Assembly (NCBI GenBank): GCA_009838195.1
Contig: VXSC01000008.1
Span: 1-64,000 of the forward strand
Source of the DNA: Rhodothermaceae bacterium
GTDB taxonomy: Bacteria > Bacteroidota > Rhodothermia > Rhodothermales > Bin80
Direction of reading: 5' to 3'
Length of the DNA: 64,000 bases
The position numbers were made by a program, and so were the translations under genes. The notes below the pieces were generated by a model. The model had not been told where the DNA came from. It ran no database searches and worked only from the letters and a program-made list of their open reading frames with translations. Numbering within the stretch: the stretch's first letter is position 1; the number at the start of each line of letters is the position of its first letter. This document shows positions 33,167 through 49,465 of the stretch, in pieces.

Positions 33167-35458
33167 ATGCCCCATCACGACCACGATACCGCCGTGTTAC
33201 TGCACCCGCCTAAGCACCTTGATTACAGTTTAACGGGTGAAAATGCGGCCGCTGCTATAGAGAGAGGCTTGGCCGAAGCCGATTGGTATCAGAGTCCTGT
33301 TTCCCGCGCGCGGCTACGCGAACTTCTTGAACGGCGAGATGGGCCAGCCATCCGTGACACAATCATCTGGTTTGTCCTCATCGCTCTGTGTGGCTGGCTA
33401 ACTATTGTCTTCTGGGGAACAGTCTGGGCAGTGATACTCTATCTGACCTATGCGGTCCTGTTTGCATCCGCTTCCGACTCTCGTTGGCATGAAGCAGGCC
33501 ACGGAACGGCATTCCGCACCGACTGGATGAACAACGTGCTTTATGAAATCGCCTCATTCATGGTCATGCGCGAATCCGTTATACGGCGCTGGAGTCACAC
33601 CCGCCACCACAGTGATACACTCATCGTGGGACGTGACCCAGAAATTCTAGTCCCGCGTCCCCCTGATGTCAAGGCAATCGTGTTGAGATTTACCAATCTT
33701 TCCGTGTATTTGAAATACTTCAAGACGATTACGCTCCACGCCCTTGGCAGACTGACTCCTGCTGAGAAGACCTTCGTTCCCGAGAGCGAATTTCCGAAGA
33801 TCTACCGCAACGCACGAATCTACTTTGCCATCTATGCTGGAGTCGTTGGCCTCTCCATCTCCACATTCAGTATTCTGCCTCTAATGATGGTCGGCCTCGT
33901 CAATCTGTTTGGCAGCTGGCTCATGGTTATCTATGGCTATACCCAGCATGCTGGTATGGCAGAGAACGTGTTGGACCATCGCCTGAATTGCCGAACGATC
34001 TACATGAATTGGGTTAACCGCTTCCTCTACTGGAATATGAATTACCACACGGAGCATCACATGTATCCCCTCGTTCCGTACTACAACCTCCCCAAGCTCC
34101 ACGAAGAGGTTAGAGATGATTGTCCGCCTCCATACACGAGCTTACTAAACGCTTACGCGGAGATCATTCCCACAGTCTTCAGGCAGATTCAGGATCCCGC
34201 ATACCATATCAAGCGCAGTCTTCCGGCGCCCAAAGCAAGAGACGAAGAGGCCAAACTTACCTCCGCCGCTGATCCAGACACGGAGGGATGGCTTGAGGTT
34301 TGCTCGGCGGAGGACCTGGGTAAGGAAGATGTCATTCGCTTCGACTATTCCAAGAAAACCTTTGCCCTCTACCGAGACGATGAAGGCAATCTCTATGCCA
34401 CGGATGGTGTCTGTACGCACGGCAATACTCATCTTGCAGATGGTCTCGTCCAGAGCAAGATCATTGAGTGCTCCAAACACAATGGTCGCTTCAATCTGGC
34501 TGATGGCTCCCCGGCCCGTGCCCCAGTTTGTCGAGGACTTGCCACGTACCCGCTGGAGGAGCGCAATGGCCGACTTTGGCTCAATGTTTCGACACCTGGT
34601 GGTGATGGGACTCGGGAACATAAAGTGTATCGTTTCCGGGTAGTCAGCAACCGGAATGTCTCTACGTTTATTAAGGAGCCTACATTGGAGCTGATTGACA
34701 AGACTCAGAGTATCGGCGCCCGTCCGGGCGAGTACATGCAGTTGGATGTTCCTGTATATGATCAGATATGCTTCAGCGATTTTGATATACCCAATCCCTA
34801 TGCGGATGTATGGGAGCGCCAACATGTCTTTGACTTGGTCGTCGCAAATTCCGAAGAAGGTCGTCGCAACAACTATTCCCTCGTCGGAGACCCTGACCGT
34901 GATGAGGTCGTGCGCCTAAATGTGCGCATTGCCACCCCTCCTCCCGGACAGGAATGTCCTCCGGGCGTCGGCTCCAGCTATATGTTCAATCTAAAGCCTG
35001 GAGACGAAGTCACTGCCATCGGACCATTCGGGGATTTCCATATCAAACCCACACAAAAGGAGATGGTATACATCGGCGGCGGTGCTGGCATGGGCCCCCT
35101 ACGTGCACACCTCAATCACCTGTTTGAAACCGAACAGACTAGGCGCCGGGTCAGTTACTGGTATGGCGCGCGCTCGAAACAAGAGATCTACTATTCGGAT
35201 TACTTCGAGCGACTTGCATCCGAGCATTCAAATTTCAGCTTCCATCTCGCCTTGTCTTCACCGCTCGAAGAAGATAATTGGAGTGGTCATATAGGTTTTA
35301 TCCATGAGGTGGTTTTTGCGCAATACCTGAAAGACCATCCTTCGCCAACCTCCGTTGAGTACTATCTCTGTGGCCCGCCGATGATGATCAAGGCATGCAA
35401 CAGAATGCTGAGAGATCTAGGTGTGGACGCTCACCAGATAGCCTACGACGAATTCTAA
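33167..35458 (+). CDS. Three-module oxygenase: membrane fatty-acid-desaturase/MocD domain + Rieske ferredoxin + NqrF-like flavin reductase
   Basis: 763 residues. Residues ~60-340 form a membrane di-iron desaturase/hydroxylase domain with three His boxes: H108-E-A-G-H112, H144-T-R-H-H148 and H294-T-E-H-H298, plus hydrophobic segments around 65-100 and 215-260. Residues ~370-465 form a Rieske domain with C416-T-H418 and C435-S-K-H438. Residues ~475-763 match the FAD/NAD part of NqrF: RPGEYMQLDV, YIGGGAGMGPLRAHL, SYWYGARS, DNWSGHIGFIHEV and YYLCGPPMM near the end. The plant-type ferredoxin of NqrF is absent, replaced by the Rieske domain. The order matches the separate rhizopine-catabolism proteins MocD, MocE and MocF. 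A single chain could pass electrons from NADH through FAD and Rieske to the di-iron site. The substrate is unknown. Confidence 0.88.
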   Translation: MPHHDHDTAVLLHPPKHLDYSLTGENAAAAIERGLAEADWYQSPVSRARLRELLERRDGPAIRDTIIWFVLIALCGWLTIVFWGTVWAVILYLTYAVLFASASDSRWHEAGHGTAFRTDWMNNVLYEIASFMVMRESVIRRWSHTRHHSDTLIVGRDPEILVPRPPDVKAIVLRFTNLSVYLKYFKTITLHALGRLTPAEKTFVPESEFPKIYRNARIYFAIYAGVVGLSISTFSILPLMMVGLVNLFGSWLMVIYGYTQHAGMAENVLDHRLNCRTIYMNWVNRFLYWNMNYHTEHHMYPLVPYYNLPKLHEEVRDDCPPPYTSLLNAYAEIIPTVFRQIQDPAYHIKRSLPAPKARDEEAKLTSAADPDTEGWLEVCSAEDLGKEDVIRFDYSKKTFALYRDDEGNLYATDGVCTHGNTHLADGLVQSKIIECSKHNGRFNLADGSPARAPVCRGLATYPLEERNGRLWLNVSTPGGDGTREHKVYRFRVVSNRNVSTFIKEPTLELIDKTQSIGARPGEYMQLDVPVYDQICFSDFDIPNPYADVWERQHVFDLVVANSEEGRRNNYSLVGDPDRDEVVRLNVRIATPPPGQECPPGVGSSYMFNLKPGDEVTAIGPFGDFHIKPTQKEMVYIGGGAGMGPLRAHLNHLFETEQTRRRVSYWYGARSKQEIYYSDYFERLASEHSNFSFHLALSSPLEEDNWSGHIGFIHEVVFAQYLKDHPSPTSVEYYLCGPPMMIKACNRMLRDLGVDAHQIAYDEF

Positions 35459-41529: not shown

Positions 41530-41553
41530 GTATGCCTTTGACTAAATTAAAAT

Positions 41554-41574
41554 GCACCGCAAATCGCGCGGTGC
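41554..41574 (-). promoter_or_regulatory. Hairpin with U-rich tail in the secD leader
   Basis: On the minus strand GCACCGC-GCGATTT-GCGGTGC forms a perfect 7-bp stem followed immediately by ATTTTAATTT, ending 24 bases before the secD ATG. It looks like an intrinsic terminator or attenuator. It could stop antisense transcripts from the helicase operon, or control secDF read-through. Confidence 0.45.
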
Positions 41575-42098
41575 CTATTTCACAGCCCCGTGGAACGCTA
41601 ATCTACCCAAAAAGGTGCCCAATTTCATCAGAGCACTGCGAATATTGAAAAAATTGGTGCAGTCACAGTGATCGATTGTACCTGTCCTTGCAGTTCGTGA
41701 TCTGCCAGGAACTAATCCGGTTTCTACCCAAGAGCATCAGATGACCCAACCGCCGCTTCGTGCGAAACTCCCTGAATTGAGACGATAACTGCCTCTGGAG
41801 GCATTATAGACAGCTTTTCGGTTTTAATGTTACTTGGCAACAAACTTGTTCGGGTTTTTTGCCGCATCTCGGTGTCATGTCCCGTTGCGCACTGACCGTT
41901 ACGTTTCTTTGTGTATTTTCCTGAGAGAATTGCAAAATTTTCTTATGATGTGTATTGAAATATGGTAATCATTGCACCCAGAAAATAACTCGGCTGTTTA
42001 TTACATCTTGAAATGCTAATCAGGTTCAACTACTATACTAATATACCCCGCCGTATCACTGCCGATTGTGCCCCTTAACATCTGGGTATACGCTCTCT
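41575..42098. other. Intergenic region upstream of the helicase operon
   Basis: About 520 bases divergent between secD (minus) and the DrmAB-like gene (plus). It is AT-rich near the operon start, with TATACTAATATA at about 42037-42048 as a possible promoter core. No small gene, tRNA, repeat array or integrase attachment site is seen. The size is generous for a simple promoter and could hold an unannotated regulatory RNA. Confidence 0.4.
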
Positions 42099-45000
42099 AT
42101 GGATTACGTTGAGGCACGAAACCGCTTGGTTGCATGGCTGCGTGAACAAATGATCGGCCCCGCAACCGAAGACGCTGTTGTAAACGAAAACCCACTAAAA
42201 CTTTATCCTGTGGGTGTGCTCAGTCCGACTGAGTCCACTTCAAACCCTCGCATTGATGACCTAAAAGCTATTCACCCGGATGGCCCTTCAAATGCAGAGA
42301 ATGATATAGATGAAGCTCTTTCATATAGACGCTACTATACGGCTCCATCCAGTGTTGGGTTTACTTTCTTTGTGAGCCGTGATGCACAGCTTTCTATTAC
42401 AGTATCTGCAAGCCGTTATAAAAGCCGAGGGGAAAGGGATGAGTCTGGGAGATTTGTTAAGCAGTCCTATAATCGTATAGAGTTGCAACCGTTTGAAATC
42501 ACGATTGATAAGCCTAGTGGCACAATCAAACAAGCAATTTGGGAGAATCGAGCAAGCATTGTATTGGAACCACGCCTACAAACGAATGGAATCCTCTGTA
42601 CATTGGCGCTATCAAATCTCAAAAGGGGTCCAGAAAGCTTGAGGCATTCCGATAAGGCAGAGTTATACCTTTTTGAAGTCCATCTCTGTTGCATCGTTGA
42701 GTCGGGAGATCTCTTAGAGCTCCCCCGCCTTGCTCCATCCATGATGAGCGAGGAAGAGCTTGAACTGGAACTTCAATACAAAGAGAGAAAGATATTCGGT
42801 GTCGGGCATGGCGCTGCGGTAGACTGGAATGTGAGCCCTAGATGTATTACCAAGATCTGGTCAGAGTTTATGCCAGTGGTAGAAACGCCCGCACTATCAA
42901 CGAATCCGCAAGGAGACCATGATGCGCTTGATTTGAAGCGTTTATGCGATGAGGATATTACAACACTCTTAACCACGTTGAGGGATTTTTTGGACGGATA
43001 CGAAAAATGGATTGTTAAGCAACGGAAGATTATTTCGGGGTTTGCTGATGAACTGGAGAGAGAAACAGGGGAACGCATGGTGAAGCGTATGGAAGTTGCA
43101 TTAAAGCGTATGCACCAAGGCGTAGATCTGCTTGAGGATGACGAGTATGTTGCAGAGGCATTTCGCTTGGCAAATCAGACTATGCTGAATCAGATGCAAC
43201 AGGCAGATAGAATTGAGGGACGGGATCCAAGCACAAATAATTACCGATGGAGATCATTTCAGTTAGCTTTTCTTCTGACCGTGCTCGAGTCTGCTGTTCA
43301 GGAAAAAAGCAGCTTTCGAGAAACCATGGACCTCATATGGTTTCCGACTGGCGGAGGGAAAACGGAAGCGTACCTTGGACTCATCGCAATCCTCATTATA
43401 TGGCGCAGGCTTAATTATGGAACGATGGGAGGTGGTACCGTTGCAATCATGCGTTACACGTTGCGACTGCTGACCCGGCAGCAGTTTGAACGTGCTGCTC
43501 GAATGATCTGTGCACTTGAGTTGATTCGCCAAAAAGATAATCGTCTGGAAGAAGAACCGTTTAGCGTAGGATTTTGGGCTGGTACGGCAGTGAGCCCAAA
43601 CACATACGATCAGGCGAAAAAGAAAGTGAAAGCCATTGCGGATGGCAGCAACTCTGAGCGTTTCAACTTTATCCTTACCTCCTGCCCCTGGTGTGGTGAG
43701 GAATTAACAAAATACGGGTACGTGTATACGCCTGACAGTTTCAGGTTTTACTGCACAAATGAATCCAATTGTGATTTTGGAAGACGCCGCGATTCCAAGC
43801 CACAACTCCCACTTCCCTGCCAAGTTGTAGATCATGCCTTATATGATGCTCCCCCATCACTTCTTATTAGTACGATTGACAAGTTTGCCAGACTTCCTTG
43901 GATTGAAGGGCCATACGCTTTCTTTGGCCGCAATACGCGGCGGTCCCCGGAACTCATCATTCAGGATGAACTCCACTTGGTAACTGGCCCTCTTGGGTCA
44001 ATCGCTGGTGTTTATGAGGCAGGGATTGAAACGGTCATCAGGGAACTGGGCGTGAGCCCAAAATATATTGCCTCCACAGCTACAATCAGCGAAGCCCGCA
44101 AGCAGGTTCAGAGCCTATATGGGCGCGACATTGAGGTTTTCCCACCGCCAGGGCTCTCTTGTGACGACATGTATTTTGCTACTACAGATCATAGCCGACC
44201 AGGCCGTAAGTATCTGGGATATCTAGCACCAAATCTCAGTAGGCAAGAAAGCATCAGCCCGATTATGGCCGCACTGATGGCGGCACCAAGTGTTTTATTT
44301 GGGGAAAATCAAAATTTTGCAGATCTGGCAGAGGCGTGGTGGACGATGATTGTATTTAATCGCAGTCTAAGGGATGTGCGCACCTACCATAACGAGGCTT
44401 TCCGTGGTGTGCGAAAGGCAGGAATGAAGTTTGCCAATAAGAATCACTCTCAAAGCGAGAATCATGAGACGCTGGATTCGATTCGTGAGCGATTCCAGAA
44501 GCCTCGCATATCTGAACTCACCAGTCTCAGATCGGCCGAAGATTGTGCCATCACATTCAAGGAGTTAGAACATCCACGAAATCACGCGAAATGCCTTGAC
44601 GTGGTATTTGCAACCAATATGATTTCTGTGGGACTTGATGTTTCGCGGTTGGCCCTGATGGTGGTCAATGGACAACCGCAATCGGCAGGGGAATACATTC
44701 AGGTTACGGGCCGTATCGGACGGGCCGAAGTGCCCGGTTTAGTGATCGTCAATTACTATCGTACACAAGCCCGAAGTCTTGCGCATTACGAAAATTTTCG
44801 ACCATTCCACGAGTCATTCCATCGGTTTGTCGAGACTTCCAGCATCACCCCCTTCACCTATCAGGCACGGAAGCGAGCCCTTCATGCAGCTTTGGTCACC
44901 ACACTTAGGTACCTGTGTAATCATTTGATTGGAAATGCTGGTGCACTTAAAATCGGGGAACAAGAGGAGGAAGAAAGACAGATCTTAACCCAATTAAGCA

Positions 45001-47063
45001 ATCGGTTCACGAACGCATGTCTAGACCCGGTGACACAAACTCAAGTGGATGAGCATCTCAAACGGCTTTATCAAACCTGGTGTGATAAAGCTGAAGAGTG
45101 CAAGAAAAGACGCCGAGAACTGTGCTACTATGTAAGGGATGACCGGAATGATGCTGACCGCCTGCTTAAGAGTGCTGAGTTGTCTGTCAAAGGAGTATGG
45201 GATACATTGAATTCCATGCGAAATGTGGAAGAGTCGGCAAAATTAAATTATGGGCCTCATACGGTAGACGTGCGATTCTCGAACTTGCTGGGTTCATCAG
45301 GAGTCGGCTCCATAGTCCCTATGGGAGAAAATACAGAGAGTTTTAACTCGGTTGTGAAAGACATCACCCTTTGGCCTCAAGATTTACTGCCTGACCAAGA
45401 ACTGAAGTATGTTACTCAGATCAGCAAGCACCCAAATATCAGTAACCGTAGACTTATCAGGCCGCCGGTCCCAATAAAGAGAGATGACAAGTTCACTAAT
45501 TGTATCCCGGCAGAAAAATTTCCACGGTGGTCATATTGTATTAAGTGTGGACTGCTTAGTTATTACTCCCTGACCGTTGCAAATAAATGCCCCGACGAAA
45601 GCTGCGATGGAATCACGAGACAGGTTCATTGGGTTCTCGTACATCGGCAAGGCTTTTTAGCTGATGTGGACTGGCACTATATGGCACATGGGAAAAAGTC
45701 AAAAGATTGCCCCCGCACCAATGATCGGGCCTATCTCAAACTGATTCAGGAACCTAAATACCTAGTCCAGTGCACGAAATGTAATCGCACGGGTTGGCAA
45801 GATATAGCCCAGTTTGGGAGGAAAACGTGGCAACAGCCCTGGGTCCGCGAGCCTGCGGAGGAATTCATTGCCGATAGTATGGCAGAAGTCATGTATATCG
45901 GTGACTCCCGAATGTACCAAGAAGAGAAACACAGATCCCTAGTAATACCACCTGAATCACGCATTAGACGAGGTAGTATCGTTGATCTTCTGTATAGAAA
46001 TAGCGATGATCAACGGAAAATTAACCAAGATCAAACAGACTTTCAGCGTAAAAGCGTGATAAAACGTATTGCAACAAAATATGGATGCGGTCCCAAAGAG
46101 ATCAGAGATGCATTAGCGGAGATTGAACGTGGTTATCCTCTCTATGATGAACAAGTGGGCGCGGATCATCTGATGCAACTTGAATATGATGCACTTTCAA
46201 ATCCCATTCCGGACCAACGGGAGGACGAAGATCTTGTCACGACACATCATACCCTAGAATGGAAAGAACGGAGTGGTGATCATTTGCCTCCTGAAATCGT
46301 GTCGTTGGTTAACAGCTTAGCTGCAGTTGAACGTCTACGAATGGTTTCTGTGTTTTTAGGGTTCAGGCGTGATGCCTTTAGAGATCAATCTAGGGGTAGC
46401 AACATGAAAGGAAGACCCAGTTTGGTACCCCCCGATGTTTTTGGTACTTCTGATTGGCTCCCCGCAGATGAATTATATGGTGAAGGAATATTCTTTACAT
46501 TGAGCGAGCCTTTGCTGCAGGTTTGGGAGGAAAAGGTCCGAATAGCTCGACAAACCGACCGTGAACTGAACAAATTATTGGGGCGGATAGATTCCTCTAT
46601 GAAAGAAAATGACGAGGTGTCGAAAACACCACGGTTTGTACTTTGTCATTCACTATCTCATCTACTGATTCGACAACTGGAGCGCAACTGTGGTTATCCA
46701 TCTGCCTCTCTCAAAGAGCGTATATATGTAAAAGATGGTGAACGTCCCATGGCGGGGATTCTGATTTTTGTCGCTGTTTCTGACAAACATGGCTCGCTGG
46801 GCGGGCTGACGGAATGGGCTCAACCACAAAAATTTTATCGCTTGATTTCACGAGCGTTTGATGCCTCGCAGTGGTGTTCATTTGATCCGGTGTGTTGCAA
46901 TCCAGAAGACAGCAAGCTTGAGCAACTAAACGGAGCAGCGTGTCACGCGTGTCTGATGATCCCCGAGTCAAGTTGCTGCTGTAACAACAAATACCTTGAC
47001 CGAATTCTGATCAATGGAAACGGTAAAACTCTCCCATCACTTCTTGAAATAAACGAACTATAA
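42099..47063 (+). CDS. DrmA-DrmB fusion: giant SF2 helicase with C-terminal DUF1998 domain (DISARM-like)
   Basis: 1654 residues from the ATG at 42099 (a TTG at 42066 would add 11). The first ~1050 residues read as DISARM DrmA: FPTGGGKTEAYLG at 415, MRYTLRLLTRQQFERA, a zinc ribbon from C529/C532, DELH at 623-626, ASTATIS, FATNMISVGLDVSRLALMVVNG and QVTGRIGRA at 868. From about residue 1060 it reads as DrmB: GVGSIV, IPAEKFPRWSYCIKCG with further Cys pairs, then DUF1998 with CHSLSHLLIRQLERNCGYP, GILIFVAVSDKHGSLGGL and a Cys-rich end (NGAACHACLMIPESSC). In DISARM, DrmA and DrmB are separate and form a complex that targets unmodified phage DNA; a fusion is consistent with that. Two more genes follow with 4-base spacing and an 8-base overlap. 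Confidence 0.85.
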   Translation: MDYVEARNRLVAWLREQMIGPATEDAVVNENPLKLYPVGVLSPTESTSNPRIDDLKAIHPDGPSNAENDIDEALSYRRYYTAPSSVGFTFFVSRDAQLSITVSASRYKSRGERDESGRFVKQSYNRIELQPFEITIDKPSGTIKQAIWENRASIVLEPRLQTNGILCTLALSNLKRGPESLRHSDKAELYLFEVHLCCIVESGDLLELPRLAPSMMSEEELELELQYKERKIFGVGHGAAVDWNVSPRCITKIWSEFMPVVETPALSTNPQGDHDALDLKRLCDEDITTLLTTLRDFLDGYEKWIVKQRKIISGFADELERETGERMVKRMEVALKRMHQGVDLLEDDEYVAEAFRLANQTMLNQMQQADRIEGRDPSTNNYRWRSFQLAFLLTVLESAVQEKSSFRETMDLIWFPTGGGKTEAYLGLIAILIIWRRLNYGTMGGGTVAIMRYTLRLLTRQQFERAARMICALELIRQKDNRLEEEPFSVGFWAGTAVSPNTYDQAKKKVKAIADGSNSERFNFILTSCPWCGEELTKYGYVYTPDSFRFYCTNESNCDFGRRRDSKPQLPLPCQVVDHALYDAPPSLLISTIDKFARLPWIEGPYAFFGRNTRRSPELIIQDELHLVTGPLGSIAGVYEAGIETVIRELGVSPKYIASTATISEARKQVQSLYGRDIEVFPPPGLSCDDMYFATTDHSRPGRKYLGYLAPNLSRQESISPIMAALMAAPSVLFGENQNFADLAEAWWTMIVFNRSLRDVRTYHNEAFRGVRKAGMKFANKNHSQSENHETLDSIRERFQKPRISELTSLRSAEDCAITFKELEHPRNHAKCLDVVFATNMISVGLDVSRLALMVVNGQPQSAGEYIQVTGRIGRAEVPGLVIVNYYRTQARSLAHYENFRPFHESFHRFVETSSITPFTYQARKRALHAALVTTLRYLCNHLIGNAGALKIGEQEEEERQILTQLSNRFTNACLDPVTQTQVDEHLKRLYQTWCDKAEECKKRRRELCYYVRDDRNDADRLLKSAELSVKGVWDTLNSMRNVEESAKLNYGPHTVDVRFSNLLGSSGVGSIVPMGENTESFNSVVKDITLWPQDLLPDQELKYVTQISKHPNISNRRLIRPPVPIKRDDKFTNCIPAEKFPRWSYCIKCGLLSYYSLTVANKCPDESCDGITRQVHWVLVHRQGFLADVDWHYMAHGKKSKDCPRTNDRAYLKLIQEPKYLVQCTKCNRTGWQDIAQFGRKTWQQPWVREPAEEFIADSMAEVMYIGDSRMYQEEKHRSLVIPPESRIRRGSIVDLLYRNSDDQRKINQDQTDFQRKSVIKRIATKYGCGPKEIRDALAEIERGYPLYDEQVGADHLMQLEYDALSNPIPDQREDEDLVTTHHTLEWKERSGDHLPPEIVSLVNSLAAVERLRMVSVFLGFRRDAFRDQSRGSNMKGRPSLVPPDVFGTSDWLPADELYGEGIFFTLSEPLLQVWEEKVRIARQTDRELNKLLGRIDSSMKENDEVSKTPRFVLCHSLSHLLIRQLERNCGYPSASLKERIYVKDGERPMAGILIFVAVSDKHGSLGGLTEWAQPQKFYRLISRAFDASQWCSFDPVCCNPEDSKLEQLNGAACHACLMIPESSCCCNNKYLDRILINGNGKTLPSLLEINEL

Positions 47064-47067
47064 TTGT

Positions 47068-48246
47068 ATGCAGACCCGTAAATGGAAACTGCCTGGGGTG
47101 CAGGATCTGACGAAGGATCAGGAGGCAGCACTAGCATACTCGGCCAAGGGACAGCATCTTGTCATTGGTGGCCCCGGTACAGGCAAGACAGTGGTTATGG
47201 TGATGCGAGCAATACAGCTCCGAAGACAAGGTACGAAACATGTTTTCCTGGTGTACAATCACATGCTGCATCAAGCAAGCCAACAGATGGCGGGAGAGCC
47301 GTTTACAAGCTCCACATATATGTCCTGGTTCTGCAAAAAATTCAGGGAAATTACAGGCGAATATGTGCCTAACTTAAAGCCATATGAATATGATTGGACG
47401 GCATGTGTAAGTATAGCAAGTGAGATATCAGGGAAACACATTTCATTGAACGAGAAAGAACTCCTCATCATTGATGAAGGGCAGGATATGCCTCCGGGCT
47501 TCTATGAAACACTGATTTACCTTGGTTATGAAAACTTTTTCGTTGCGGCGGATCAGAATCAACAGATCTGGGGAGATCGTAACAGCAGTCGTCAAGATCT
47601 TGAGGATGTACTTGCAATTGATACCACAGATGTAATAGAACTCAAACACAATTTCCGAAACAATTATGGAATTGCTCGCCTAGCGCGGGCATTCTATACC
47701 GGTGATCCGGCTAGCCCCCCACCTAAACTACCAGACCAACAAAGAAGAATCTATGTCCCGATACTGTACACCTTTCAGAATCAACCGGGGGTATACATTG
47801 GAATCGCAAAAAAAATCATCAAGTTCTTCCTCCGTGATCGTCAAAAACTCATTGGCGTGATTACGCCAAATCACCGTGTTCGGAAAAAATATTTAGATGC
47901 CTTAAAGGAGTCCGCGGTTTTGCTTAGCGAAAATTCCGTAAAGATCTATACTTATGACTCCGAGAATAAGCATGTCCGATTTGATGAGGGATGTATTGTA
48001 GTTCTCAACGCTCAATCATGCAAGGGACTTGAGTTTGATGCCGTCGTTCTGGCTGACATTCATGAACACTTCATCCACCGTGACGACCGGGATGCGACCA
48101 AAAAGTTGTTTTATGTGATGGTTTCGAGGGCATGTGATGCAGTATTTCTGCTAATGAAGGATGACTCCTCTAATCAAATTCATGACATCCTGCCAAAGGA
48201 TGTATCTGTGTTACAACGCAAGAAAATTGCCGCCTCCCATGCCTAA
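47068..48246 (+). CDS. Compact UvrD/Rep-like superfamily 1 helicase
   Basis: 392 residues. Motifs in order: Q-motif-like LTKDQEAAL, Walker A GGPGTGKT at 34-41, Walker B IIDEGQD at 134-140, motif III AADQNQQIW at 160-168, LKHNFRNN (motif IV), NAQSCKGLEFD (motif V) and FYVMVSRA (motif VI). This is about half the length of UvrD, so the 1B/2B inserts are small or missing and unwinding may need partners. It begins four bases after the DrmAB-like gene and overlaps the next gene by eight bases, so the three are co-expressed. A role as the nucleic-acid motor of a defence complex is inferred from context. Confidence 0.85.
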   Translation: MQTRKWKLPGVQDLTKDQEAALAYSAKGQHLVIGGPGTGKTVVMVMRAIQLRRQGTKHVFLVYNHMLHQASQQMAGEPFTSSTYMSWFCKKFREITGEYVPNLKPYEYDWTACVSIASEISGKHISLNEKELLIIDEGQDMPPGFYETLIYLGYENFFVAADQNQQIWGDRNSSRQDLEDVLAIDTTDVIELKHNFRNNYGIARLARAFYTGDPASPPPKLPDQQRRIYVPILYTFQNQPGVYIGIAKKIIKFFLRDRQKLIGVITPNHRVRKKYLDALKESAVLLSENSVKIYTYDSENKHVRFDEGCIVVLNAQSCKGLEFDAVVLADIHEHFIHRDDRDATKKLFYVMVSRACDAVFLLMKDDSSNQIHDILPKDVSVLQRKKIAASHA

Positions 48247-49414
48247 ATCACATTCAATAGACTCAGGACTGTTCGTTACAAATCATTTGAACCTGATGTT
48301 CTGCTTTGCTTCTGGATTCATCACCCCGCCGTCTGGATTCGGAGACAAATACTATCAAGACACCCTCGGTGTACAACCTGGATCAATCCCACTCTTTATT
48401 AACAAAGTCCCACAAAGTGCGATTGACCTATCTGTGGAAGAAGCAGCACATCTAATTCCAATCATCGCAGAAATTAATCTCACAGATCTTGAACTGTCTG
48501 CCCCCATTCGACAACTTCAATTATTCGAACCTCTACCTCCGAAAAAGAAAACTCAAAAATCTGTCACGTTTGCACGCGCTCCTATTTCAATCACACGAAT
48601 TCTCCGAGTCTATGTTAAATCAGACAAAACACGTGAGGAAGTTCTAAGTCAGGTACAACTTCGAAATAATGTCCCTCTAAAGCCTGGAATCATAAAACGT
48701 AGAAAGACATCCTTTACCACGGCGTTAAAGAAATGGACTTGGAAACAAAACAATCAAACAGAAGAAGTAGACCCGCCTATCCTTCTTGCCCAAGCTTCAG
48801 GAGGAATTCTTGCAATGTTGAACCATGTAAAGGATAGAAGCATGGCTGCTAAGAAAGCATTTTCATCGGCGTTTGAAATTGAGTCTACAGATCCTCCCAT
48901 ACCGGGCCTTAGCGAGTGGATAGAAAAAGGTCACATTGTACCATGGACAGAATCAGAGGAAGGCTATCTGCTGTGGAGTCTCGTAGAGAAATTGGCTACG
49001 CATCGGGACAATAGCAACGACAATGATTTGGACGAATTAGTCCTTCATTTCCTTGAAAATCTTCCAGCGAAAATTCATCACCGAACTCTTCCTCTTTGCA
49101 AAACGTTGTTAGAACTCGGTGGGCTTGGTGGATCCACGATACCTGAATATTTTAATTTGCACACAGACCCACTGGGACGGGCGGTCATTCTTTTTTTCCT
49201 GCGTCGCCAATGTCGAGAGTTGTTGGAATTTGACCAAGCAATAATGACCGACCATGACTGGGCATATTCAGCGATTCTTTTTGGAGCTCGTTCTGGTTGG
49301 TTGCGACTGTCTCTAGAATTACGCAGCGACGAAAACTTGGGAGACAAGATTTGCGACTGGATGACTTCTTATTGCCATCGAATAGAAAATATCAAGACTC
49401 CAATGTCGCACTGA
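48239..49414 (+). CDS. Unrecognised third protein of the helicase operon
   Basis: 391 residues from the ATG at 48239, which overlaps the helicase stop by eight bases; a longer frame from 48161 lies wholly within the helicase gene and is rejected. I recognise no domain. The N-terminal third is hydrophobic and beta-like (LMFCFASGFITPPSGFGDKYY, GSIPLFINKVP). A basic stretch follows (PPKKKTQKSVTF, IIKRRKTSFTTALKKW) that could bind nucleic acid. The C-terminal half looks helical with many Leu (LPLCKTLLELGGLG, ILFFLRRQCREL). No signal peptide or clear membrane helix. Coupling to the helicases suggests a subunit, regulator or effector of the same system. Confidence 0.6.
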   Translation: MPKSHSIDSGLFVTNHLNLMFCFASGFITPPSGFGDKYYQDTLGVQPGSIPLFINKVPQSAIDLSVEEAAHLIPIIAEINLTDLELSAPIRQLQLFEPLPPKKKTQKSVTFARAPISITRILRVYVKSDKTREEVLSQVQLRNNVPLKPGIIKRRKTSFTTALKKWTWKQNNQTEEVDPPILLAQASGGILAMLNHVKDRSMAAKKAFSSAFEIESTDPPIPGLSEWIEKGHIVPWTESEEGYLLWSLVEKLATHRDNSNDNDLDELVLHFLENLPAKIHHRTLPLCKTLLELGGLGGSTIPEYFNLHTDPLGRAVILFFLRRQCRELLEFDQAIMTDHDWAYSAILFGARSGWLRLSLELRSDENLGDKICDWMTSYCHRIENIKTPMSH

Positions 49415-49465
49415 ACCCTGATTGAACCCATCAGTAACAAAGCCCGAACTAACTGAACGACCAAA

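What the first reader, a model, noticed from the sequence alone, without database searches (positions are those of the whole stretch)
42099..47063. Single-chain DrmA-DrmB fusion
The 1654-residue protein carries DrmA-type helicase motifs (FPTGGGKTEAYL, MRYTLRLLTRQQFERA, DELH, LMVVNG, QVTGRIGR) and then a near-complete DrmB (GSIV, FPRWSYCIKCG, DUF1998 with its Cys-rich end). In described DISARM loci these are two proteins that form a complex, so the fusion is structurally sensible and could fix their stoichiometry.
Basis: partly seen in the sequence, partly recalled or inferred. Interest (0 to 1): 0.8.

Follow-up and report, generated by a model that had tools for sequence, protein, structure and literature searches.

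The report
Single-chain DrmA–DrmB helicase in compact operon
Two bacterial proteins that normally work as a pair in the DISARM anti-virus system are joined here into one 1654-residue protein, inside a small three-gene cassette that differs from standard DISARM and includes an uncharacterised partner protein.

Summary
Window 42099-47063 is one uninterrupted 1654-aa frame. Residues 7-1051 are DrmA and 1057-1641 are DrmB, by NCBIfam, PADLOC, PDB-sequence and fold comparison; no DruE model matches. A second Rhodothermales genome carries the same fusion at 57% identity, so it is not an assembly error.

The fusion is secondary. In DrmA and DrmB trees of 45 loci the two fused proteins form one pair nested inside relatives (44-45% identical) whose drmA and drmB are separate but in the same frame, 33-51 nt apart. 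The join has almost no added linker and falls in the segment corresponding to DrmA's "pivot arm", just after the DNA-contacting valine (V1043 = Serratia V1296).

The operon is not canonical DISARM: no methyltransferase or DrmC. It reads drmAB - minimal SF1 helicase - unknown protein X. Nine split loci in several phyla share the drmA-drmB-SF1 order (eight with X) and form one clade with it. X has no Pfam family; its model weakly resembles the DarT ADP-ribosyltransferase fold, without DarT's catalytic glutamate. Most likely an acquired, minimal DISARM-like anti-phage system; activity is untested. Helicase-DUF1998 single chains are normal elsewhere in the YprA family, which lowers novelty.

The parts
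42099..47063 (+). Single-chain DrmA-DrmB fusion, 1654 aa
   Evidence: orthologous fusion in G014
42117..45251 (+). DrmA part (residues 7-1051): N-terminal region, RecA1 with GGGKT, DELH, STAT, RecA2 with QVTGRIGR
   Evidence: NF038325 and PADLOC DrmA models, PDB 7s9v_A
45225..45272 (+). Junction (residues 1043-1058, VEESAKLNYGPHTVDV): V1043 aligns with DrmA V1296; little added linker
   Evidence: alignment with 7s9v chains and with split relatives
45267..47021 (+). DrmB part (residues 1057-1641)
   Evidence: NF038324 positions 4-601 of 604 over 1057-1638; PADLOC DrmB to 1641; fold match 7s9v_B
46653..46955 (+). DUF1998/MZB zinc-binding domain with four Cys (1593, 1599, 1615, 1618)
   Evidence: PF09369 over cut-off
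47068..48246 (+). Minimal SF1 (UvrD/HelD-like) helicase, 392 aa, Walker A GGPGTGKT, DEGQD, motif VI VMVSRA
   Evidence: Pfam UvrD-helicase, UvrD_C_2; follows drmB in 11 loci
48239..49414 (+). Protein X, 391 aa, N-terminal domain weakly DarT-like in fold, helical C-terminus
   Evidence: homologues in the same position in 10 of 11 loci; AF2 and Foldseek

Best explanation
The 1654-aa protein is a true, secondary fusion of DISARM-type DrmA (SF2/YprA-family helicase) and DrmB (OB-connector-DUF1998 canopy). It is the first gene of a compact DISARM-like operon: drmAB, a minimal SF1 helicase, and protein X. Proposed mechanism: the single chain patrols as an autoinhibited SF2 motor; exposed ssDNA or 5'-tailed phage DNA enters the RecA1/RecA2 groove; V1043 contacts a base as V1296 does in Serratia DrmA; and the change passes to the DrmB canopy directly through the chain, because the segment corresponding to DrmA's pivot arm is here the covalent join to DrmB. 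The activated motor then acts with the SF1 helicase to strip or remodel phage DNA, with X as a nucleotide- or DNA-binding effector or regulator. Shown: the architecture, its conservation in two genomes, its derived position in the trees, the conserved catalytic and V residues, the conserved gene order, and an empty site in a congener. Inferred: anti-phage function, ssDNA triggering, the role of the join, and everything about X beyond a weak fold match.
For: Family and fold assignment of both halves. Full-length orthologous fusion in G014 followed by the same two genes. DrmA tree: fused pair 100*, nested with split L028/L029 (100*) and then split L097 (100*); the 11 loci with this SF1 neighbour form one clade (SH-aLRT 94; 100/99 in the DrmB tree). 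The nearest split relatives have drmA and drmB in the same frame, 33-51 nt apart (L097: 18 nt). V1043 aligns without gap to DrmA V1296; the column is V in 39 and I in 5 of 45 sequences; V1296 and the pivot arm are needed for Serratia DISARM activity (PMC9142583). A search of plasmids with the SF1 protein alone gives six records, four of which are the drmAB loci. In congener G001 secD and the Gfo/Idh gene, which flank the operon here, lie 382 bp apart with no operon.
Against: No activity data exist for any member. The locus sits among housekeeping genes, not in an obvious defence island. The AF2 model of the join has low confidence (block pLDDT about 43-57 over residues 320-380 of the fragment), so the pivot-arm statement rests on sequence alignment. 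The X-DarT resemblance is weak (Foldseek E 4.7e-3) and not supported by profile comparison.
Confidence: 0.6

Rival explanations
1. Ancestral single-chain state: the protein keeps the fused form typical of the YprA family, and DISARM split later.
For: Helicase and DUF1998 are normally in one chain outside DISARM (PMC12458937).
Against: The fused pair is nested inside split relatives in both trees with full support; all 43 other pairs examined are split.
Confidence: 0.04
2. Canonical DISARM that uses methyltransferases encoded elsewhere in the genome.
For: Two C5-methyltransferases on contig C18; the V1296-equivalent is conserved; some class members carry a C5-methyltransferase beside the cassette (L063, L100).
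Against: No methyltransferase or PLD protein in this operon or among the flanking genes tested; different partners (SF1, X); a clade separate from drmC-bearing loci.
Confidence: 0.12
3. DNA repair operon (MrfAB-like) rather than anti-phage defence.
For: MrfA shares the fold and is a repair helicase (PMC12458937); housekeeping surroundings.
Against: Sequence and fold are closer to DrmA/DrmB than to MrfA; patchy distribution (fusion and its linked SF1 in 2 of 99 genomes of the order), an empty site in a congener and plasmid-borne relatives suggest accessory mobile genes.
Confidence: 0.15
4. Assembly or sequencing artefact, or a decaying gene that lost a stop codon.
For: In relatives only a stop and a short gap separate the two genes.
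Against: Same fusion in an independent genome at 57% identity with all motifs intact and the following genes intact.
Confidence: 0.01

Closest known systems
DISARM DrmA + DrmB (Serratia DrmAB, PDB 7s9v/7s9w)
   Same: Both proteins, domain order, catalytic motifs, base-contacting valine, DUF1998 Cys cluster
   Different: One chain instead of two; shorter DrmA part (about 1050 versus 1325 aa); the junction takes the place of the distal pivot arm; no methyltransferase, DrmC or other DISARM accessory gene alongside
Unnamed DISARM-like drmA-drmB-SF1-X operons (e.g. plasmids of Photobacterium and Deinococcus gobiensis; Verrucomicrobiae OX638380; Rhodobacter MAG JAJEAY010000259)
   Same: Same gene order; DrmA and DrmB in the same clade; homologous SF1 and X
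   Different: drmA and drmB are separate; several also carry a NERD helicase or a C5-methyltransferase; X is longer in the nearest relatives
MrfA and other single-chain YprA helicases (DruE of Druantia, ARMADA, DpdJ)
   Same: Helicase and DUF1998-type region in one polypeptide
   Different: Sequence and fold much more distant; DruE models do not match; ARMADA and Druantia helicases typically bear C-terminal nuclease domains (PMC12458937)

Membership tests
DrmA | Best match to DrmA models over the helicase and N-terminal region | tested here: met
   NF038325 793.8 bits; PADLOC DrmA 642 bits; 7s9v_A E 7.9e-128
DrmA | Score above NCBIfam equivalog cut-off (950 bits) | tested here: not met
   793.8 bits; by that rule it would not be called a DISARM DrmA equivalog
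DrmB | DrmB_fam over its curated cut-off, full length | tested here: met
   318.8 bits vs 240, positions 4-601 of 604
DISARM system | Methyltransferase (DrmMI/DrmMII) in the operon | tested here: not met
   None in the operon or among the flanking genes tested; two unlinked C5 MTases on contig C18
DISARM system | PLD nuclease DrmC next to drmB | tested here: not met
   SF1 helicase and X follow instead; PLD matches in the genome only on other contigs
DISARM system | Anti-phage activity | not testable with these tools
   needs experiment
Druantia (DruE) | Match to DruE models | tested here: not met
   No DruE model at E<=0.01, while the DruE-type protein of the same genome scores 598 bits
DarT ADP-ribosyltransferase (protein X) | DarT fold | tested here: inconclusive
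   Foldseek top hits are DarT structures, E 4.7e-3, prob 1.00, TMt 0.51; model pLDDT 72.5; profile comparison not significant
DarT ADP-ribosyltransferase (protein X) | Catalytic Glu in the AEFLV-type motif | tested here: not met
   The aligned motif in X (SVTFARAP, RVLLIPAP, RVILVPAP) has no Glu; the alignment itself is weak

The most novel reading that the evidence does not exclude
drmA-drmB-SF1-X is a distinct, undescribed class of DISARM-like defence. In its minimal form it has no linked methyltransferase, so self/non-self discrimination does not rely on one; an ART-fold protein X takes part as effector or sensor, and in Rhodothermales the DrmAB complex has become one covalent machine.
Probability: 0.4. 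Interest if true: 0.65.

Novelty: new variant of a known kind. Interest (0 to 1): 0.5.

Why it matters
A natural single-chain DrmAB gives a stoichiometric construct for structural and single-molecule work on a motor that has been studied as a two-protein complex, and it tests whether the pivot arm must be a free end. Members without a linked methyltransferase that still keep the V1296-equivalent make a direct test of whether that residue senses methylation or simply contacts any base. The conserved SF1 and X partners point to a DISARM-like class that is not described in the papers found here.

Tried and rejected
DruE and other single-chain YprA helicases as the family: rejected by HMM scores and by the contrast with the genome's own DruE-type protein. 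Long open frames reported for G442, G149, G193 and G984 looked like further fusions; reading the loci showed separate genes, so the open-frame figure bridges stops. No relatives in viral contigs and one short, weak match in phages. X by tblastn in plasmids: none. X against a DarT profile by hhalign: not significant; some rows of that profile were wrongly picked ORFs (L146, L149), so this test is weak. The SF1 protein is not exclusive to drmAB: a copy with a DnaJ-like N-terminus sits alone in G014 (L073) and another lies in G729 without drmAB. A first idea that the fusion deleted most of the pivot arm was softened: in other members of this class the DrmA tail after the valine is only 11-20 residues, against 12 to the DrmB start in the fusion. 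A full-length fold of the fusion was not possible (1200-residue limit).

Full report
Observation. NCBIfam gives DrmA (NF038325) over residues 7-616 and on to about 1050, and DrmB family (NF038324) over 1057-1638, i.e. positions 4-601 of 604. PADLOC agrees, as do the sequences of the solved Serratia DrmAB complex: chain A E 7.9e-128, chain B E 2.6e-52. The fold of residues 691-1654, predicted from an alignment of 14 rows (mean pLDDT 68.8), matches 7s9v chain B best (E 1.4e-26, TM 0.73 on the target), then DrmA; MrfA is far behind. DruE models do not match, while a DruE-type protein on contig C47 of the same genome scores 598 bits.

Real, and conserved. The genome G014 of the same family (the Rhodothermales MAG contig CATQHT010000003.1) has the same fusion, 1654 aa, 57-58% identical, starting with the same residues. 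An assembly error or a dying gene is therefore very unlikely. The window's organism is thus most likely a member of the Rhodothermales.

How rare. P0001 was searched in 99 relatives, 394 genomes of the phylum, 289 of the phylum of L028 and 398 of the phylum of L029, sets that overlap in part. Of 45 loci where I read both parts, two are fused and 43 split. Long 'open frames' reported by the search tool in some genomes turned out to be separate genes in one frame. The plasmid collection has 89 records with matches; nearly all listed rows with annotation show two genes. Other fusions may exist in genomes not sampled.

Derived, not ancestral. In DrmA and DrmB trees the fused pair is one branch (100), inside a four-row clade with the Verrucomicrobiae locus L028 and the Rhodobacter MAG locus L029 (100), inside a five-row clade with L097 (100); those three are split. 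One fusion event explains this. In L028, L029 and L097 the two genes lie in the same frame with a stop and 33, 51 and 18 nt between them, so a short in-frame deletion that removed the stop would suffice. Only 8 of 43 split pairs are in the same frame overall.

The join. Around the junction the fused chain reads SMRNVEESAKLNYGPHTVDVRFSNLL; the split L028 reads SMRNVEGEGALKVQNWKAKKDPDNR*, then MTDEIIPVRLSHLL. The alignment with Serratia DrmA runs without a gap to residue 1302 at its end, which puts V1043 on V1296, and DrmB begins at its residue 11 seven residues later. [quoted passage not shown] mutating or deleting them cripples DISARM (PMC9142583). The column is V in 39 and I in 5 of 45 proteins. 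In this class of loci the tail after the valine is only 11-20 residues, and in the fusion 12 residues lead to DrmB, so the two chains are joined nearly end to start with little added sequence. That the covalent join takes over the pivot arm's role is my inference; the predicted model is not confident there.

Operon. Four bases after the fusion comes a 392-aa SF1 helicase with UvrD-type motifs, and overlapping it by 8 bases a 391-aa protein X without a Pfam family. The same order, drmA-drmB-SF1-X, is found in L028, L029, L097, L063 (G123), L100 (G1267), two Photobacterium plasmids and the Deinococcus gobiensis plasmid, and drmA-drmB-SF1 in a Streptomyces plasmid. With the two fused loci these make eleven, and they form a clade in both trees. 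X proteins are related by a chain of pairwise matches, some of them weak. Several members add a NERD helicase (L029, L097, L063) or a C5-methyltransferase (L063, L100). The two Rhodothermales operons are the minimal form; for the window no methyltransferase, DrmC or NERD helicase is among the operon and flanking genes tested, and the genes next to the G014 operon show none by eye. Two C5-methyltransferases exist on another contig, C18.

Mobility. The operon lies between secD and a Gfo/Idh oxidoreductase gene among housekeeping genes. In the congener G001 these two genes are 382 bp apart with nothing between; in G005 they are about 2.4 kb apart without the operon. The operon is thus an accessory insertion. 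Other congeners (G003, G008, G009) carry split DISARM-type loci of a different branch.

Protein X. AlphaFold2 (seven rows, pLDDT 72.5) gives an N-terminal alpha/beta domain and a helical C-terminus. The best PDB matches are DarT structures (Thermus 7omv E 4.7e-3, probability 1.00) and tRNA 2'-phosphotransferase, which share the ADP-ribosyltransferase-type fold, and one sub-threshold Pfam match is to an ART family (E 0.014). Sequence profiles do not confirm it and the catalytic Glu of DarT is not apparent. I therefore treat 'ART-like fold, perhaps inactive' as a lead only.

Known or new. Bell et al. (PMC12458937, a preprint) state that helicase and OB-CON-DUF1998 are typically in one chain in the YprA family, that DISARM is the only branch where they are consistently separate, and that many uncharacterised DISARM-like classes exist. 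So the fusion restores the family's usual arrangement within the DISARM branch. I found no paper describing a DrmA-DrmB fusion or this operon class, but the library holds open-licence papers only and the supplementary tables of that preprint could not be read. Verdict: new variant of a known kind, moderate interest.

Noticed in passing
L075:3314-8263 (G000 contig C47): A 1650-aa DruE-type (Druantia-like) helicase with a 959-aa unknown gene upstream and a 242-aa protein downstream, in the same genome.
   Followed up: partly
L073:8671-10458 (G014): A second copy of the SF1 helicase, 36% identical to the window's, apparently fused to an N-terminal DnaJ-like domain and not next to drmAB.
   Followed up: partly
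window 33167-35458: One 763-aa protein combines a fatty acid desaturase, a Rieske [2Fe-2S] domain and FAD/NAD reductase domains, possibly a self-contained desaturase.
   Followed up: no
L019:8913-11903 (G008): The drmA of a split DISARM-type locus ends early (996 aa, 368 bp before drmB), lacking the C-terminal pivot segment; possibly a frameshift.
   Followed up: no
window 48239-49414 versus L028:17125-18783 and L029:13288-14883: X in the two fused Rhodothermales operons lacks a C-terminal stretch of about 100 residues that the split relatives have.
   Followed up: partly
window 41530-49465; L135, L136: The secD - Gfo/Idh interval varies among congeners (empty in G001, about 2.4 kb without the operon in G005) and may be a small insertion hotspot.
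   Followed up: partly
L118:12810-13412 (Azospirillum ramasamyi plasmid): A DarT-family gene lies just downstream of a drmA-drmB-NERD helicase cassette, an ADP-ribosyltransferase next to a different DISARM-like branch.
   Followed up: no
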